Part shown: in pieces, positions 46,308-52,694 of the stretch | How positions within the stretch are numbered: position 1 is the first letter of the stretch | How the letters are laid out: the number at the start of each line of letters is the position of its first letter | Position numbers and translations under genes: made by a program | Assembly (NCBI RefSeq): GCF_011040385.1 | Contig: NZ_JAAIKB010000003.1 | Span: 372,001-436,000 of the forward strand | Source of the DNA: Falsiroseomonas algicola | GTDB lineage: Bacteria; Pseudomonadota; Alphaproteobacteria; Acetobacterales; Acetobacteraceae | Direction of reading: 5' to 3' | DNA: 64,000 nt | Notes under the pieces: model-generated | What the model was told of the DNA's origin: nothing | What the model saw: only the letters and a program-made list of their open reading frames with translations | Database searches by the model: none

Positions 46308-46420
46308 CGGTGGCGATTCCCGGGGGCGCGATCCGATTCCGCGCCGGTGGGCCAAGAATGCACCGGAAGGCGGGCGGCCCGGAAGCGCCGTCCGCCGGCC
46401 TTCGAAACGACTTGTCAGGT

Positions 46421-46437
46421 GTTACCGCAATGGTAAC
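46421..46437. promoter_or_regulatory. Palindromic operator-like site before the first Hint gene
   Basis: GTTACC-GCAAT-GGTAAC, a perfect 6-bp inverted repeat with a 5-base centre, lies 68-84 bases upstream of the first Hint-protein ATG in an otherwise A/T-rich stretch. The shape suits a dimeric repressor or activator. I did not find the same sequence upstream of the other three copies. Confidence 0.4.
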
Positions 46438-46504
46438 TCTCCGGGTCAGCGTTCAGGGAAAAACTCTCCTTCCGGTTGCATCCGATCCGTCGTTGGGGAC
46501 GATC

Positions 46505-47395
46505 ATGGCTACATTCGACATCGCCGGCTTGTATCCCGGGACCTTCAACCCGGCGACCGGCGTCTTCCGCATCACCGAGGCCTGGATCCCCTTCGCCTAC
46601 ACCTACACGGACGACAATGGCAGCGTCGTGGGCGGCGATCAGGTGGTCGGCGATCCGAATGACGGCCTCGGGCCGTTCACCGACACCTATGTCGGCTCCA
46701 TCAACGGCCATTGGGTCGTCGCCACGGAGGAGGACGGCTACTTCCTCGCGACGACCACGGTGAATCCCTATCCCATGGGCATCACCGCCGTGGTGGACCA
46801 GACGACGCCCTTCATCTTCTGCTTCGCCGCCGGGACCGCGATTGCGACGCCCGCGGGCGAGGTGCCGGTGGAGGCGCTGGCGCCCGGTGACCTGGTGCTG
46901 ACGGCGGATGGGCGCGCGGTGCCGGCACTCTTCATCGGACGGCAGACACTGTCAGCGATCTTCGTGCCGGAGGCGCGCAGCCTGGTGCGCATTGCCGCTG
47001 GCGCGCTGGGAGAGGGGCTGCCGCGGCGCGACCTGGTGCTGACGGGCGACCACGCCCTGCTGCTGGAGGGCGTGCTGGTGAATGCCGGCGCGCTGGTGAA
47101 CGGCACGACGATCGCGCGGGTGCCGCGTGGGGCACTGCCTTCGCGCTTCACGGTCTATCATGTGGAAACCGCGGCGCATGACATCATCCTGGCGGAGGGC
47201 GTGCCGGCGGAGACCTACATGGATGCGAAGGGTCGCGCGCGCTTCGACAACCATGCGGAGTATGTCCCGCCGCCTGGCGGGGATCGGAAGATCGAGCATC
47301 CGGCGCCGCGCGTGACGGCGCCGCGGCAGGTGCCGGCGGCGGTGCAGGCCCGCCTGGCCGGTCATGCGCCGGCTCCCCCGACCGTCGCCGCCTGA
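46505..47395 (+). CDS. Hint-domain protein, array copy 1
   Basis: This 296-aa protein has an N-terminal variable domain (1-103) and a Hint_2 (Hedgehog/intein) domain. The Hint part starts with Cys106 (FIFCFAAGTAIATP), the N-S acyl-shift nucleophile, and has VPVEALAPGDLVLTADGR, the block-B TGDH at 180-183 and YHVETAAHDIILAEGV (His219, His225). The intein-type C-terminal His-Asn is absent, so Hedgehog-like self-processing is more likely than splicing. A conserved tail follows: EYVPPPGGDRKIEHPAPRVT. No signal peptide is visible. The start is ATG 46505. Three paralogues follow in tandem. Confidence 0.8.
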   Translation: MATFDIAGLYPGTFNPATGVFRITEAWIPFAYTYTDDNGSVVGGDQVVGDPNDGLGPFTDTYVGSINGHWVVATEEDGYFLATTTVNPYPMGITAVVDQTTPFIFCFAAGTAIATPAGEVPVEALAPGDLVLTADGRAVPALFIGRQTLSAIFVPEARSLVRIAAGALGEGLPRRDLVLTGDHALLLEGVLVNAGALVNGTTIARVPRGALPSRFTVYHVETAAHDIILAEGVPAETYMDAKGRARFDNHAEYVPPPGGDRKIEHPAPRVTAPRQVPAAVQARLAGHAPAPPTVAA

Positions 47396-47594
47396 CCCCC
47401 AGGCGATCGCGCGCCTGCCCGCGGTAAGCCGCGCCAGGGCAGGCGAGCACGACGCCAAGCGGCACGGCGCATGGAACGAGAAACACTCGAAGGCTGAGCC
47501 GCACGGCGCTGCCCGAGTTGTCGTGCCGCCGCAACGGTTGCAGCATGCGCCCTGGCTGACCGACATCAACCCCTGAATGCTGGAGTTCATCGTG

Positions 47595-48488
47595 GCCGTC
47601 CTCAGCACGTCCGGCTACTACTACCTCGGAAATCAACCGAGCGGGCTTGGGTCTTCCTTCACCATCCCGGCGGGCACCTTCTCCTACCTCGCAGTTGACT
47701 TCTCCGACGCGGATGGCGCCCTGCAGCCTGGGGATCGGATCACCGGCGAATGGGAGGAGGTATACAGCTTTCAGTTCACCTATGTGGGCAACCATGAGGG
47801 CAACGTCGTCGTCGCCCTGGACGATGACTATTACTTCTTCACGCCGTCGGAGGACCCTTACCCCGACGGCGCGACCATCACCCCTGACACGACGTCGACC
47901 TTCGTCTTCTGCTTCGCCGCCGGGACGGCGATCGCGACGCCATCCGGCAAGGTGGCGGTGGAGGCGCTGAAGCCCGGTGACCTGGTGATGACGACCGACG
48001 GGCGTGCGGTGCCGGCGATCTTCATCGGGCGGCAGACACTGGCGGCGATCTTCGTGCCGGAGGCGCGCAGCCTGGTGCGTGTCGCTGCCGGGGCGCTCGG
48101 CGATGGGCTGCCGCGGCGCGACCTGGTGCTGACGGGCGACCACGCGCTGATGCTCGACGGCGTGCTGGTGAACGCCGGCGCGCTGGTGAACGGCACGACG
48201 ATCGCGCGGGTGCCGCGTGGGGCACTGCCTTCGCGCTTCACGGTCTATCACGTGGAGACGGCGGCGCATGACATCATCCTGGCGGAGGGCGTGCCGGCGG
48301 AGACCTACATGGAGGCGAGGGGTCGCAAGCGCTTCGACAACCATGCGGAGTACGTCCCGCCACCTGGCGGGGACAGGAGGATCGAGCATCCGGCGCCGCG
48401 CGTGACGGCGCCGCGGCAGTTGCCGGCGCGGCTACGGTGCCTGGTTACTGGCTCTCCGCTGCATGACCGGTCGAGGCGGGTAGCCTGA
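47595..48488 (+). CDS. Hint-domain protein, array copy 2
   Basis: This 297-aa paralogue has the same layout: variable head 1-104 (MAVLSTSGYYYLGNQPSGLG), Hint from Cys107 (FVFCFAAGTAIATP), TGDHALMLDGVL, YHVETAAHDIILAEGV and the tail PPGGDRRIEHPAPRVT. The head keeps the family pattern GYY...D-DGAL-PGDRI and FTYVGNHEGNVVV. I take GTG 47595 with TGGAG eight bases upstream, matching the MAxF/GYY starts of copies 3 and 4; ATG 47577 is an alternative. The tail is longer and ends RSRRVA. Secreted or surface location is inferred for the whole array. Confidence 0.78.
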   Translation, partial: AVLSTSGYYYLGNQPSGLGSSFTIPAGTFSYLAVDFSDADGALQPGDRITGEWEEVYSFQFTYVGNHEGNVVVALDDDYYFFTPSEDPYPDGATITPDTTSTFVFCFAAGTAIATPSGKVAVEALKPGDLVMTTDGRAVPAIFIGRQTLAAIFVPEARSLVRVAAGALGDGLPRRDLVLTGDHALMLDGVLVNAGALVNGTTIARVPRGALPSRFTVYHVETAAHDIILAEGVPAETYMEARGRKRFDNHAEYVPPPGGDRRIEHPAPRVTAPRQLPARLRCLVTGSPLHDRSRRVA

Positions 48489-48748
48489 TCATCGAGATGC
48501 AGAAAAGGCACGCCGTGCGGCGTCGTGCCAAGTGACTTCGTTCCCGCAGTCTCTGCCTCAGCGTCGCGCGACGCGTCTGGCCCAGCGGTCGGGAGAGCGC
48601 TTTCGTGGAGTCAGACCGGTCAACCGGAACTGCCCATTTTCACGAATGCGTGTGTTCATTATCCGGTGGGATGATGTGGATAACGTCGTGATGATATCCG
48701 TAGTTGAGGGGGCCGGTGACGGTCTCAACCGACTGGAAAAGCGAGACG

Positions 48749-49678
48749 ATGGCTGATTTTCCGACTGCCGGATACTATAATCTCCAATACGATACAGTTA
48801 CCCACCAATTCACCATTCTTGGCGCGTTCAACGAAGCCGCGAATACCTATACCGACAGCGATGGCGTCGCGACGCCAGGCGAAGCGATCGGCGGCCTGTA
48901 CAATGAGACTTATGTCGGCAGTTTCGAGGGCCATCTCGTCGTCTCGGATGGCAGCTATTACCTGTCGACGACGAGCGTCGACCCGTATTTCGATGGATTC
49001 ACCTTCGCGGCGGATACGACGACGCCCTTCATCTTCTGCTTCGCCGCCGGGACGGCGATCGCGACGCCATCGGGCGGGATGGCGGTGGAGGCGCTGAAGC
49101 CCGGCGACCTGGTGCTGACGGCGGATGGGCGCGCGGTGCCGGCGATCTTCATCGGACGGCAGACGCTGGCGACGATCTTCGTGCCGGAAGCGCGCAGTCT
49201 GGTGCGCATCGCGGCGGGAGTGCTGGGGGAGGGGCTGCCGCGTCGCGACCTGGTGCTGACGGGCGATCATGCGCTGATGCTCGACGGCGTGCTGGTGAAT
49301 GCAGGTGCGTTGGTCAACGGCACGACGATCACGCGAGTGCCGCGCGCCCAGTTGCCCGCACGCTTTACGGTCTATCACGTGGAGACCGCAGCGCATGACA
49401 TCATCCTGGCGGAGGGCGTGCCGGCGGAGACCTACATGGATGCGAAGGGTCGTGCGCGCTTCGACAACCATGCCGCCTACGTCCCGCCGCCTGGCGGGGA
49501 CCGGAAGATCGAGCATCCGGCGCCGCGCGTGACCGCGCCGCGGCAGGTGCCCGCGCGACTGCTGGCACGCATCGCTACCTCATGGGCGCGCCCGGGCTTC
49601 GCGGTCGCGGGCGAAGGCGATGCCACGGGAGGGGTGTCTCGTCGGGCATCGCCGGAGCGGGAAAGGCCCGCGGCTTGA
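48749..49678 (+). CDS. Hint-domain protein, array copy 3
   Basis: This 309-aa paralogue starts MADFPTAGYYNLQYDTVTHQ. The head (1-94) is coded by low-G+C DNA: 41 of the first 90 bases are G or C by my count, far below the Hint part. It carries TYTDSDGVATPGEAIGGLYNETYVGSFEGHLVVSDGSYYLSTTS, then Hint from Cys97 (FIFCFAAGTAIATP), TGDHALMLDGVL and YHVETAAHDIILAEGV. The tail PPGGDRKIEHPAPRVT is followed by a longer, Arg/Ala-rich extension. ATG 48749. The 260-base spacer before it is also less G+C-rich. Confidence 0.78.
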   Translation: MADFPTAGYYNLQYDTVTHQFTILGAFNEAANTYTDSDGVATPGEAIGGLYNETYVGSFEGHLVVSDGSYYLSTTSVDPYFDGFTFAADTTTPFIFCFAAGTAIATPSGGMAVEALKPGDLVLTADGRAVPAIFIGRQTLATIFVPEARSLVRIAAGVLGEGLPRRDLVLTGDHALMLDGVLVNAGALVNGTTITRVPRAQLPARFTVYHVETAAHDIILAEGVPAETYMDAKGRARFDNHAAYVPPPGGDRKIEHPAPRVTAPRQVPARLLARIATSWARPGFAVAGEGDATGGVSRRASPERERPAA

Positions 49679-49709
49679 TGGCGGGGCGCGACGGCGCCTC
49701 CCGAATGCG

Positions 49710-49738
49710 TTGACAATTCCAGGACGCCTGGATACTCA
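49710..49738 (+). promoter_or_regulatory. Sigma70-like promoter before Hint copy 4
   Basis: TTGACA (49710-49715), a 17-base spacer and TACTCA (49733-49738). The -35 is perfect, the -10 weak. The spacer holds the small inverted repeat CCAGG-ACG-CCTGG, a plausible operator. The leader downstream (about 49745-49785) is A/T-rich. Confidence 0.45.
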
Positions 49739-49810
49739 GGATCCTGTTTGTTTCGATAAAAGAAAGAAAATTTTCCGATTGTCTGACAAACGTGGCAGGG
49801 AGAAAGTCAG

Positions 49811-50680
49811 GTGGCGGATTTCACGACGGTTGGCTATTATCAGATCGACTACAACGAGGTCGATAAGACATTTACCATCTATAATAGTTATGTATCTGAA
49901 GAGAATACCTTCACCGACGCAGATGGCGCGATGAATCCGGGGGAATTCATCGGCGGCACCTATAGCGAAACCTATGTCGGGAGCTTCGAGGGGCATATCG
50001 TCACCTACAACGGCGTCAGCTACTGGCTGGCGACGACCAGCGAAGACCCTTACCCCGCCATGTTCACCGGCACCGTGGACACGGACAACGCCTTCATCTT
50101 CTGCTTCGCGGCCGGCACCGCCATCGCGACGCCATCGGGCGAGGTGCCGGTGGAAGCGCTGGTGGTTGGTGACCTCGTGCTGACGGCGGATCGGCGCGCG
50201 GTGCCCGTCACGTTTCTCGGGCGACAGACCCTGACGCGCTTCAACCTGCCTGAGGCGCGCAGCCTGGTGCGCATCGCGGCCGGGGCGCTCGGCGATGGGC
50301 TGCCGCGGCGCGACCTGGTGCTGACGGGCGACCACGCGCTGATGCTCGACGGCGTGCTGGTGAATGCGGGGGCGCTGGTGAACGGGACCAGCATCACGCG
50401 CGTCCCGCGTGCCGAATTGGCCGCGCGCTTCACGGTCTATCACGTGGAAACCGCGGCGCATGACATCATCCTGGCGGAGGGCGTGCCGGCGGAGACCTTC
50501 ATGGATGCGAAGGGCCGCGCGCGCTTCGACAACCATGCGGACTACGTCCCGCCGCCTGGCGGGGATCGGAAGATCGAGCATCCGGCACCGCGCGTGACGG
50601 CGCCGCGGCAACTCCCGGCGTGGCTGGCGGAACGGATCGACGGCCATGTCGGAGTGGATGGGCTGAAGGCGGCGGCCTGA
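49811..50680 (+). CDS. Hint-domain protein, array copy 4
   Basis: This 289-aa paralogue starts from GTG 49811 (MADFTTVGYYQIDYNEVDKT). The head (1-95) is again low in G+C: 36 of the first 90 bases by my count. It carries ENTFTDADGAMNPGEFIGGTYSETYVGSFEGHIVTYNGVSYWLATTS. Hint begins at Cys98 (FIFCFAAGTAIATP) and includes VGDLVLTADRRAVPVTFLG, TGDHALMLDGVL and YHVETAAHDIILAEGV. The tail is PPGGDRKIEHPAPRVT. The TPR/glycosyltransferase-like gene starts 17 bases after the stop, so both are likely in one transcript. Confidence 0.78.
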   Translation: MADFTTVGYYQIDYNEVDKTFTIYNSYVSEENTFTDADGAMNPGEFIGGTYSETYVGSFEGHIVTYNGVSYWLATTSEDPYPAMFTGTVDTDNAFIFCFAAGTAIATPSGEVPVEALVVGDLVLTADRRAVPVTFLGRQTLTRFNLPEARSLVRIAAGALGDGLPRRDLVLTGDHALMLDGVLVNAGALVNGTSITRVPRAELAARFTVYHVETAAHDIILAEGVPAETFMDAKGRARFDNHADYVPPPGGDRKIEHPAPRVTAPRQLPAWLAERIDGHVGVDGLKAAA

Positions 50681-50697
50681 GACAGCGCCATTCCGGT

Positions 50698-52650
50698 ATG
50701 GGGGCGGGGGAAGCGCCATCCTTGCGCGGCGCGCCGGCGCCGGCGGTTGTCGCCGCGCTGGTCGATGGTTGCGACGCCACCGAGGCCTTGGCCCGGCTGC
50801 GAGCCGCGCTGGCCGAGCACGCAACCGACATCGCGCTGCGAATCGCCGTGGCGCAGGCGCTGCGGCAGCGGGCACCGGAAACCGCGCTGGCGCTGCTGCG
50901 CGAGGCCCCGCCGGGGCATGCGCGGGATGCCGATCTCGGCCTGGAATGCGTGGCGTTGCTGCGGGCGCTGAAGCGGGGAGGCGAGGCTTCGGCGCTGCTG
51001 GTGGACCTTGCCGGGCGCCATCCGGAGGACGGGCGCATCGCCGCGCAACGCGCCGGCTTGATGGAGGCTGCCGGGGACCACGCGGGCGCAGCGGAAGCCT
51101 TCGCCATCGCCTGCCGGGCCAGCCCCGGCGACACGCAGCTGCGCATCCGCTTCGCCCGCAGCCTGCGCGCCGCGCGCCGACCCGCGGAGGCCGTCACGGC
51201 GCTGGAGAACCTGCCCGCCGACCTGCCCCAGGCGACGGCGGAGCGGAGCTACGCGTTGCTGGCAGTGGGCGATGTCGCGCGCGCGGGGGAGGAGATCGCG
51301 GCGCTGGCGCGCCGGCATCCGGGCTTCCCGCATCTTCCCCGGCTGACGGCCCTGCGGGCGGAGGCGCTGGGGGACATGCCAGAGGCCGCCGCGGCGCTGG
51401 CCGGGGCCATGGCGATCGAGCCCACCCATGCGGGGCTGCGGGACCAGCGGCGGCGCGCCTTGCGCCTGGCCGGCGATGCCGACGGCCTGCGTGCCCTTCT
51501 GGCCGAGGCGCCCGCCGGCCGGGACGCGATCCGCGGCGACCTGGTCGAGGCGCTGCTGGAGCAGGGCCAGGTGCGGGCGGCGGAGGCGGTCCTGGACACG
51601 CTGCCGGCGGATGGTGACCTCGCGCTGCGGGGCGCCGTGCTGGTGGCGCTGCGGCGCGGGCGGCACGCCCTGGCGGCATCCCATGCGGCGGCGATCCTGG
51701 CGCGCCGTCCCGATGACGCCTGGGCCCTGTGGCGGCAGGCGCAGGCGCTGGCGCTGTCTTTCCGGGCGGAGGCCGCGTGGTCCCGGCTTCGACGGCTGGA
51801 GGCGAGTGGCGCGCTGAGCCGCCGGACGGCTCGCAACAATGCCGTGGGCCATCTGGTCAACGACATGCGGCTGAACCCCGCGACGACGGCGATGCTGGCG
51901 CTGGCGGAGGAGGGCATGCCGGGCCGGGCGCTGGCGGTGGCGGTGGAGATGATGCGGCAGGAGCCGGGCGAGACCGCGCCGGCCCTGGCGCTGTTGCGGC
52001 ACTGGCCGGCGCCGGACGCCGGGGACGATAAGGGCGGTGTCCGCCTGATCCCGCCCTGCCTGCACGGCGCCGAGGAAACGGGTCCGGCCGCGGCGTTCCT
52101 GGCGTCCCGGCTTGACGCCGCCCATCCCGCCATGGCGGTGGAGGCCTGGCCGACCCGGGGCCTGATGGCGGAGGCGGCCTCCACGATGCCGCTGCTGGCG
52201 CAGGCACTGCGCCTGGCGCCGGCGGGCGCCGTGGTGCGGGACCTGCTGCGGCTGGGCGTGCTGGTGCTGCGCGGCGGGGTCTGGGTCGATCCGGGGCTGC
52301 TCTGCATCGCGCCGCTGGATCCGCTGCTGCCGCCCGGCGCGGGCCTGGTGCTGGCCCGGGATGGGCTGGGCGGGATCGGCACGGCCTTCCTGGCGGCATC
52401 GCCCGGCCATGCCGCACTGCGGGCGGCGTTGGAGGAAGCCTGCCAGGAGGTGATCGGCGGCGCGCGGGAATCGGCCTGGTTGACGACCGGCGGCGGGCTG
52501 CTTGCGCGCCATGTCGCGCGGTGGCTGGCGGAGACGGGCGGCGGGCGGGACGTCGTCATCCACGATCCGGGCCGCATCGGCCGCCATCTTCGGCCGACCC
52601 GGCATTCGCCCTGGCAGCCCGCCATCGCAGGCTGGGAAGCGGAGATGTAG
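50698..52650 (+). CDS. TPR protein with degenerate glycosyltransferase-like C-terminus
   Basis: The first 400 residues of this 650-aa protein are TPR-like helical pairs (e.g. ALIDGCDATEALARLRAALAEH, AQRAGLMEAAGDHAGAAEAF, RFARSLRAARRPAEAVTAL). From about 440, RLIPPCLHGAEETGPAAAF and RDLLRLGVLVLRGGVWVDPGLLCIAPLD resemble the sugar-binding region containing the DXD motif (family with RY..L...GGIYLDxD). The DXD appears as VDPG, so catalysis is uncertain. There is no signal peptide. The gene lies 17 bases after Hint copy 4. A role in modifying or exporting the Hint proteins is plausible but unproven. Confidence 0.55.
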   Translation: MGAGEAPSLRGAPAPAVVAALVDGCDATEALARLRAALAEHATDIALRIAVAQALRQRAPETALALLREAPPGHARDADLGLECVALLRALKRGGEASALLVDLAGRHPEDGRIAAQRAGLMEAAGDHAGAAEAFAIACRASPGDTQLRIRFARSLRAARRPAEAVTALENLPADLPQATAERSYALLAVGDVARAGEEIAALARRHPGFPHLPRLTALRAEALGDMPEAAAALAGAMAIEPTHAGLRDQRRRALRLAGDADGLRALLAEAPAGRDAIRGDLVEALLEQGQVRAAEAVLDTLPADGDLALRGAVLVALRRGRHALAASHAAAILARRPDDAWALWRQAQALALSFRAEAAWSRLRRLEASGALSRRTARNNAVGHLVNDMRLNPATTAMLALAEEGMPGRALAVAVEMMRQEPGETAPALALLRHWPAPDAGDDKGGVRLIPPCLHGAEETGPAAAFLASRLDAAHPAMAVEAWPTRGLMAEAASTMPLLAQALRLAPAGAVVRDLLRLGVLVLRGGVWVDPGLLCIAPLDPLLPPGAGLVLARDGLGGIGTAFLAASPGHAALRAALEEACQEVIGGARESAWLTTGGGLLARHVARWLAETGGGRDVVIHDPGRIGRHLRPTRHSPWQPAIAGWEAEM

Positions 52651-52694
52651 GGCGCGGCCGGCGCCATCCCGGGCGGGATGGCGCCGCGCCGCGT

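What the first reader, a model, noticed from the sequence alone, without database searches (positions are those of the whole stretch)
46505..52650. Four tandem Hint-domain proteins plus a TPR/glycosyltransferase-like gene: a possible self-processing, modified surface-protein system
The sequence shows four same-strand paralogues with nearly constant Hint domains (Cys nucleophile, TGDH, YHVE...H motifs) and different heads, and a TPR/GT-like gene 17 bases after the last one. Hint domains are known to catalyse N-S acyl shifts. The missing C-terminal His-Asn speaks against splicing and for Hedgehog-type cleavage or cross-linking. Inference: the array offers a choice of secreted heads, joined to or released from a common processing module and perhaps glycosylated by the linked enzyme. 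I know of no described system with this architecture.
Basis: partly seen in the sequence, partly recalled or inferred. Interest (0 to 1): 0.75.

Follow-up and report, generated by a model that had tools for sequence, protein, structure and literature searches.

The report
Hint-protein gene array with TPR-glycosyltransferase-like partner
A bacterium related to Falsiroseomonas carries four side-by-side genes whose proteins share one nearly identical self-cleaving-type (Hint) domain but have different front parts, followed by a partner gene that recurs beside such proteins in other bacteria and here seems to have lost its sugar-transfer active site.

Summary
Confirmed: four same-strand Hint_2 (PF13403) genes (46505-50680), then 17 bp later a TPR plus glycosyltransferase-like gene (50698-52650). 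The heads are diverged paralogues, not unrelated domains. Three results go further. (1) The pairing is real: 6 of 33 other TPR-GT places read have a Hint gene within 300 bp (0.07 expected), in five other genera, and one same-genus genome lacks array plus TPR-GT as one clean block. Most places of either gene are nevertheless unlinked. (2) Hint domains evolve in concert within species while heads stay orthologous between species; on average the switch lies at the catalytic Cys. (3) The partner's GT domain has lost its DXD motif in the window and two orthologues, and independently in a second Hint-linked lineage; 26 of 26 unlinked tree rows keep it. So the window protein probably does not glycosylate in the usual way; I read it as a TPR escort with a degenerate GT domain. 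Hint chemistry is intein blocks A, B and F without C-terminal His-Asn, as in B-type bacterial intein-like domains: N-terminal cleavage, not splicing. Cleavage, export and binding are untested. New variant of a known kind.

The parts
46505..47395 (+). Hint protein A (296 aa): head 46505-46819, Cys codon at 46820, Hint_2 domain, tail with RQVP
47577..48488 (+). Hint protein B (303 aa; start probably GTG 47592), Cys codon at 47910
48749..49678 (+). Hint protein C (309 aa), Cys codon at 49037
49811..50680 (+). Hint protein D (289 aa), Cys codon at 50102; head predicted all-beta with fair to good confidence
50698..52650 (+). TPR protein with C-terminal glycosyltransferase-like (PF04488-related) domain lacking the DXD motif
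46326..52658 (.). The block (array plus TPR-GT) that is absent as one piece from same-genus genome G203, both flanks being present

Best explanation
A two-part module. Each Hint gene makes a small beta-rich head fused to a B-type-BIL-like Hint domain and a conserved tail. The Hint domain shifts the Phe-Cys peptide bond to a thioester and so frees (or transfers) the head; it cannot splice. The TPR-GT protein is the dedicated partner: its TPR half recognises the Hint precursors. In most relatives its GT half probably adds sugar to the heads; in this lineage, and once more elsewhere, the GT active site has decayed and the protein is kept mainly as an escort or processing partner. Gene conversion is the likely reason why the Hint module stays uniform while the heads keep separate identities. 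Shown: gene anatomy, linkage, presence and absence as a block, concerted evolution, DXD loss. Inferred: secretion, cleavage, TPR binding, escort role. My odds for the pieces: real functional pairing 0.85, cleavage at the Cys 0.6, GT half not active in the usual way 0.6.
For: Hint_2 over cut-off in all four; Foldseek matches of the model to inteins and BIL domains, best E 2.3e-4. Of 33 non-window TPR-GT places read, 6 have a Hint gene within 300 bp (expected 0.074, P 2e-10 if independent), five of them same-strand Hint-then-GT with gaps of 14-126 bp. Strong TPR-GT and array matches are in the same 3 of 15 genus genomes. Empty site in G203. The Hint alignment rejects the head topology (dlnL 108) and the head alignment rejects the species topology (dlnL 121); mean orthologue and paralogue identities cross at the Cys. 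DXD lost in 4 of 8 linked and 0 of 26 unlinked GT rows, also in G205. FlmG's TPR half is needed and enough to bind its flagellins (PMC7591256, passages).
Against: 27 of 33 non-window TPR-GT places read have no Hint gene within 300 bp (several lie on short contigs); 2 of 3 plasmid loci of the TPR-GT kind viewed show no annotated Hint gene; 12 of 16 annotated plasmid Hint loci viewed have no adjacent or near-adjacent annotated GT. So each part can exist alone. Linked GTs are hardly more clustered on the tree than shuffled labels (6 changes against a mean of 7.2-7.3, reached by 76-78 of 500 shuffles; quick tree, long-branch warning for the window's row). GT dN/dS of 0.58-0.65 would also fit simple decay. 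Aureimonas is linked and keeps DXD. The Hint half and the GT half are poorly modelled. No cleavage data.
Confidence: 0.45

Rival explanations
1. The linked TPR-GT actively O-glycosylates the Hint heads in the cytoplasm before export, as FlmG does for flagellins.
For: Four linked relatives keep DXD (G166, G067, G105, G188). Aureimonas pAU20a has a Ser/Thr/Gly-rich Hint protein between a DXD-bearing TPR-GT and a GT2 gene. Other GT families beside Hint genes: TibC-type in Neokomagataea, GT4-type in Antarctobacter, an annotated glycosyltransferase in Phyllobacterium.
Against: Window and two orthologues lack DXD; the profile search listed no second match in the window's genome at E <= 1e-10 (12 of 119 first-look candidates scored).
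Confidence: 0.2
2. Hint plus tail is a self-removing export tag: the tail directs type I secretion and the Hint domain cuts it off outside the cell.
For: Tail motif R[QL][VL]P in 40 of 52 complete tails, with quite different heads; no signal peptide apparent by eye in A, C and D, no predictor run; an RTX plus Hint_2 protein in the genus; the genome's only over-cut-off PrtD-type exporter lies about 14 kb downstream.
Against: G203 keeps this exporter without the array; 12 of 52 complete tails lack the motif, 8 of them with another conserved tail; none of the 16 plasmid stretches viewed names a type I secretion gene (gene tables incomplete).
Confidence: 0.2
3. The adjacency is incidental: ordinary Hint proteins beside a decaying, unrelated gene.
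For: Most TPR-GT places and most plasmid Hint loci viewed are not linked; the GT half is under weak constraint.
Against: Linkage far above chance and in different neighbourhoods; absent as one block; open frames kept in three species.
Confidence: 0.12
4. Polymorphic-toxin precursors with a pretoxin Hint domain.
For: Sub-threshold PT-HINT hits in three relatives.
Against: Only a tail of 44-67 residues follows the Hint domain in the window copies, with no Pfam domain in it; no gene of immunity-protein kind stands out between the genes of the block.
Confidence: 0.03

Closest known systems
B-type bacterial intein-like (BIL) domains
   Same: Intein blocks A, B and F with Cys nucleophile and block-B His, no block-G His-Asn; reported to cleave rather than splice (PMC7765530, PMC4031507, passages)
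   Different: Here four tandem copies evolving in concert, with a conserved tail and a linked TPR-GT gene; activity untested
Hint_2 (PF13403) proteins of Alphaproteobacteria
   Same: Same Pfam domain; protein D matches in 155 of 200 family genomes and in 216 plasmid records
   Different: Small heads in a four-gene array paired with a TPR-GT gene
FlmG of Caulobacter (TPR plus GT, flagellin O-glycosylation)
   Same: N-terminal TPR for substrate binding, C-terminal GT (PMC7591256, passages)
   Different: FlmG has a GT-B-type C-terminus; here a PF04488-related domain that has lost DXD
TibC-type O-heptosyltransferase gene downstream of two Hint genes (Neokomagataea tanensis plasmid)
   Same: GT gene next to Hint genes
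   Different: Unrelated GT family (Glyco_transf_9), no TPR

Membership tests
Hint_2 (PF13403) | Profile score above gathering cut-off | tested here: met
   121.7-127.2 bits against 28.4
B-type BIL | Cys nucleophile and block B/F motifs present | tested here: met
   Phe-Cys, TGDH and HVETAAHD in 4 of 4; block assignment by eye
B-type BIL | No intein block G (His-Asn) | tested here: met
   No HN in the Hint end of 4 of 4; HN near the end in 1 of 55 Hint rows
B-type BIL | Autocatalytic cleavage | not testable with these tools
   Needs expression and mass spectrometry
Intein / A-type BIL | C-terminal His-Asn | tested here: not met
Hedgehog Hog domain | Thioester attacked by cholesterol via a sterol-recognition region | not tested
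   The tail lies where such a region would; only a weak fold match to the Hedgehog Hint domain was seen (1at0, E 0.054)
Gly_transf_sug (PF04488) enzyme | Profile score above gathering cut-off | tested here: not met
   Window 12.9 against 23; 4 of 6 linked relatives scanned pass
Gly_transf_sug (PF04488) enzyme | DXD motif | tested here: not met
   Absent in window, F. stagni and G205
FlmG-type TPR-GT | N-terminal TPR domain | tested here: met
   TPR_19 53.4 bits against 25; helical repeats at block pLDDT 77-94 for residues 11-300
FlmG-type TPR-GT | GT-B C-terminal domain | tested here: not met
   By sequence profile the domain belongs with PF04488-type DXD enzymes; its fold was not modelled and the fold class is recalled
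Polymorphic toxin (PT-HINT) | Toxin domain after Hint, with immunity gene | tested here: not met
   Only a short tail without a Pfam domain follows the Hint domain

The most novel reading that the evidence does not exclude
The Hint thioester is resolved by a glycan: the GT-fold half of the partner has given up sugar transfer and instead binds and presents a cell-surface polysaccharide, so that each head becomes ester- or amide-linked to exopolysaccharide, a bacterial counterpart of cholesterol attachment by Hedgehog. The array lies near an exopolysaccharide cluster (polysaccharide export and Wzz/AAA genes).
Probability: 0.06. Interest if true: 0.85.

Novelty: new variant of a known kind. Interest (0 to 1): 0.5.

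Why it matters
Matches to these Hint proteins are common in the family (155 of 200 genomes), but what their Hint domain does is open as far as I found. A compact five-gene unit with natural variants (1, at least 3 and 4 heads), an empty site in a same-genus genome, a homogenised Hint module and a linked partner gives a clean system to test whether bacterial Hint domains release, tag or anchor surface proteins. Loss of the catalytic motif in two lineages, seen only in Hint-linked copies, points to a non-enzymatic role for a glycosyltransferase-type domain.

Tried and rejected
Viral origin: one scan of viral contigs confirmed no relative. Head fold: the listed Foldseek matches with E <= 0.001 were to inteins and a BIL domain; no head-specific match could be told apart; the pdb_via library was not available. 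GT fold: the two-row alignment did not model residues 378-650. Promoters and terminators: 1 promoter-like site, on the - strand (0.5 expected), and 4 terminator-like sites (2.2 expected), uninformative. Neighbourhood: the genes scanned beside five linked pairs include RecQ (both G146 and G081), malic enzyme, a branched-chain amino acid ABC transporter and a pyridine nucleotide oxidoreductase; four of the ten proteins had no Pfam match and the G188 pair was not scanned; so an EPS context is not general. Type I exporter as part of the unit: rejected, since G203 keeps it without the array. Tandem Hint genes also occur in G202 and G204 and on plasmids, so tandem arrangement alone is not special. 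Papers: passages of PMC7765530, PMC5874633, PMC2362128, PMC4031507 and PMC7591256 were seen; all other papers were seen as listings only.

Rows dropped or not seen: L088 (G115) was left out of the GT tree because its frame holds a stop; the TPR-GT place G130:C11:375417 was listed but not fetched; the chance estimate used first-look candidate numbers (an upper bound for Hint copies) and rounded genome sizes, typed by hand; in the tree G092 (Hint 3.8 kb away) and G194 (10.7 kb) count as unlinked.
Full report
What is there. Window 46505-52650 holds four Hint_2 genes and a TPR/GT-like gene on one strand, 17 bp between the last Hint gene and the TPR-GT start. They are the only four PF13403 matches (E <= 0.001) in the 6.56 Mb genome. 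All four have the Cys nucleophile preceded by Phe, TGDH (block B) and HVETAAHD (block F), and no His-Asn in the Hint end. The block assignment is mine, by eye, in line with the reviews seen in passages. The heads are 96-111 residues, homologous to each other at 32-55%, and for D predicted as a small all-beta domain (block pLDDT 69-92 for residues 1-90; whole model 58.6 from 11 sequences, Hint half mostly poor). Foldseek places the Hint part among inteins and BIL domains (best E 2.3e-4, TM-score by target about 0.5).

Same locus in relatives. Of 15 genomes of the genus, strong matches (E below 1e-190) to the TPR-GT are in three (G000, G205, G209); five others have weak matches, E 5.7e-10 to 4.9e-4. 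Array-type Hint matches (E 5e-94 or better) are in the same three; five others have more distant Hint matches, E 1.2e-35 at best. G205 is an Acetobacteraceae MAG with A-, C- and D-type Hint genes up to a contig end, and a second contig that opens in a Hint gene and runs into the TPR-GT. G203 has both flanks at about 84-92% identity but nothing of the unit: window 46325 and 52659 fall 56 bp apart. Since G205 and G209 carry the unit at the same site, loss in G203 is the simplest reading (inference).

Concerted evolution. Heads pair by type across species (D-D 73%, C-C 65%, A-A 86% with F. stagni but 50% with the MAG), while Hint domains are most alike within a species (MAG 90-96%, window A-C 89-90%; window D only 82-85% to A-C). 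For Hint DNA the head-type topology is rejected (dlnL 108); for heads the species topology is rejected (dlnL 121). In sliding windows mean orthologue identity leads up to the Cys and mean paralogue identity leads from it for about 160 residues, into the tail; for window D alone the paralogue lead fails in several windows. Gene conversion is the likely cause (inference). Caveats: eight sequences, three genomes, one a fragmented MAG. Hint dN/dS is 0.16-0.22; head dN/dS is 0.21-0.26, except 0.59 for A against the MAG's A.

The linkage. A GT-domain profile of 23 rows found 35 places above 190 bits in 32 of 200 family genomes, counted by me from the listing. I read 34 of these regions including the window. 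Outside the window, 6 of 33 have a Hint gene within 300 bp: G166, G067, G105, G146 and G081 with Hint directly upstream on the same strand, and G188 divergent. Chance would give 0.074 (P 2e-10), or 0.99 within 4 kb against 7 seen (P 8e-5). These P values treat genomes as independent, which they are not; the six lie in five genera. Several regions end at contig borders, so misses may be overcounted; the places were found through a profile that contains the window's own GT. The neighbours scanned beside five linked pairs differ, except that G146 and G081 (one genus) share RecQ. Linked GTs do not form one clade: 6 changes, shuffled mean 7.2-7.3 (quick tree). On plasmids, 4 of 16 annotated Hint loci viewed have an adjacent or near-adjacent glycosyltransferase, of different kinds (Antarctobacter GT4-type, Aureimonas TPR-GT plus GT2, Phyllobacterium, Neokomagataea TibC-type after a second Hint gene); 12 of 16 do not. 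The 16 are my choice out of 216 records; the Aureimonas locus was opened because both searches hit it. Of three plasmid loci of the TPR-GT kind opened, only Aureimonas shows a Hint gene.

The partner. Its N-terminal TPR half is well predicted; the C-terminal half is not modelled. By profile the family resembles an OCH1-like mannosyltransferase and other DXD glycosyltransferases. The stretch that reads YADADD or similar in relatives reads WVDPG in the window, WVDRS in F. stagni and WVERS in the MAG. The Hint-linked copies of G146 and G081 have also lost it, while the unlinked copies of the same genomes, on a sister branch, keep it. In all, DXD is lost in 4 of 8 linked rows and 0 of 26 unlinked rows of the tree (Fisher P 0.0015 if rows were independent; in fact two lineages). 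Aureimonas shows that linkage does not require the loss. GT dN/dS is 0.58-0.65 and TPR 0.41-0.54: weak constraint, open frames kept in three species.

Mechanism. Most likely the Hint domain makes a thioester at its Cys and releases the head; the missing His-Asn speaks against intein-type splicing. The tail is conserved (R[QL][VL]P in 40 of 52 complete tails; in 8 of the other 12 a second class, CAP-x-LHGG, all in other genus genomes), so it is either an export signal or the part that supplies the acceptor. FlmG shows that a TPR half can be the substrate-binding part of a TPR-GT. I therefore read the TPR-GT as a partner of the Hint precursors whose transferase function has decayed here. Shown: anatomy, linkage, absence as a block, concerted evolution, DXD loss. 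Inferred: export, cleavage, binding, escort role.

Context. Downstream lie an ABC permease and ATPase, a murein endopeptidase, a polysaccharide export gene and a Wzz/AAA gene. About 14 kb past the TPR-GT, beyond the window, lies the genome's only over-cut-off PrtD-type exporter, with an HlyD gene; that stretch is also present in G203.

Noticed in passing
G000:C33:439025-440647 (L160 6959-8719), about 3 kb beyond the window end: PrtD-type type I exporter plus HlyD gene near sugar-transferase genes; the stretch is kept in G203, which lacks the array.
   Followed up: partly
L151-L155 (G201, G202, G204, G152) and L098 (G152): Other Hint proteins of the genus, one scanned and found to carry RTX repeats, have a different conserved tail (CAP-x-LHGG...AIR) from the RQVP tail of the window type.
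   Followed up: no
L100, L101, L103: Small Hint genes of G063, G088 and G138 sit beside a HerA_C helicase gene in all three.
   Followed up: no
L167 6846-8255: Aureimonas Hint protein with a Ser/Thr/Gly-rich head of about 270 residues between a TPR-GT and a GT2 gene.
   Followed up: partly
L065/L096 (G081) and L071/L089 (G146): G081 and G146 each hold two TPR-GT copies: an unlinked one with DXD and a Hint-linked one without.
   Followed up: yes
window 46505-50101, heads of A-D: Heads are 53-64% GC against 71.5-73.3% for the rest of the same genes.
   Followed up: no
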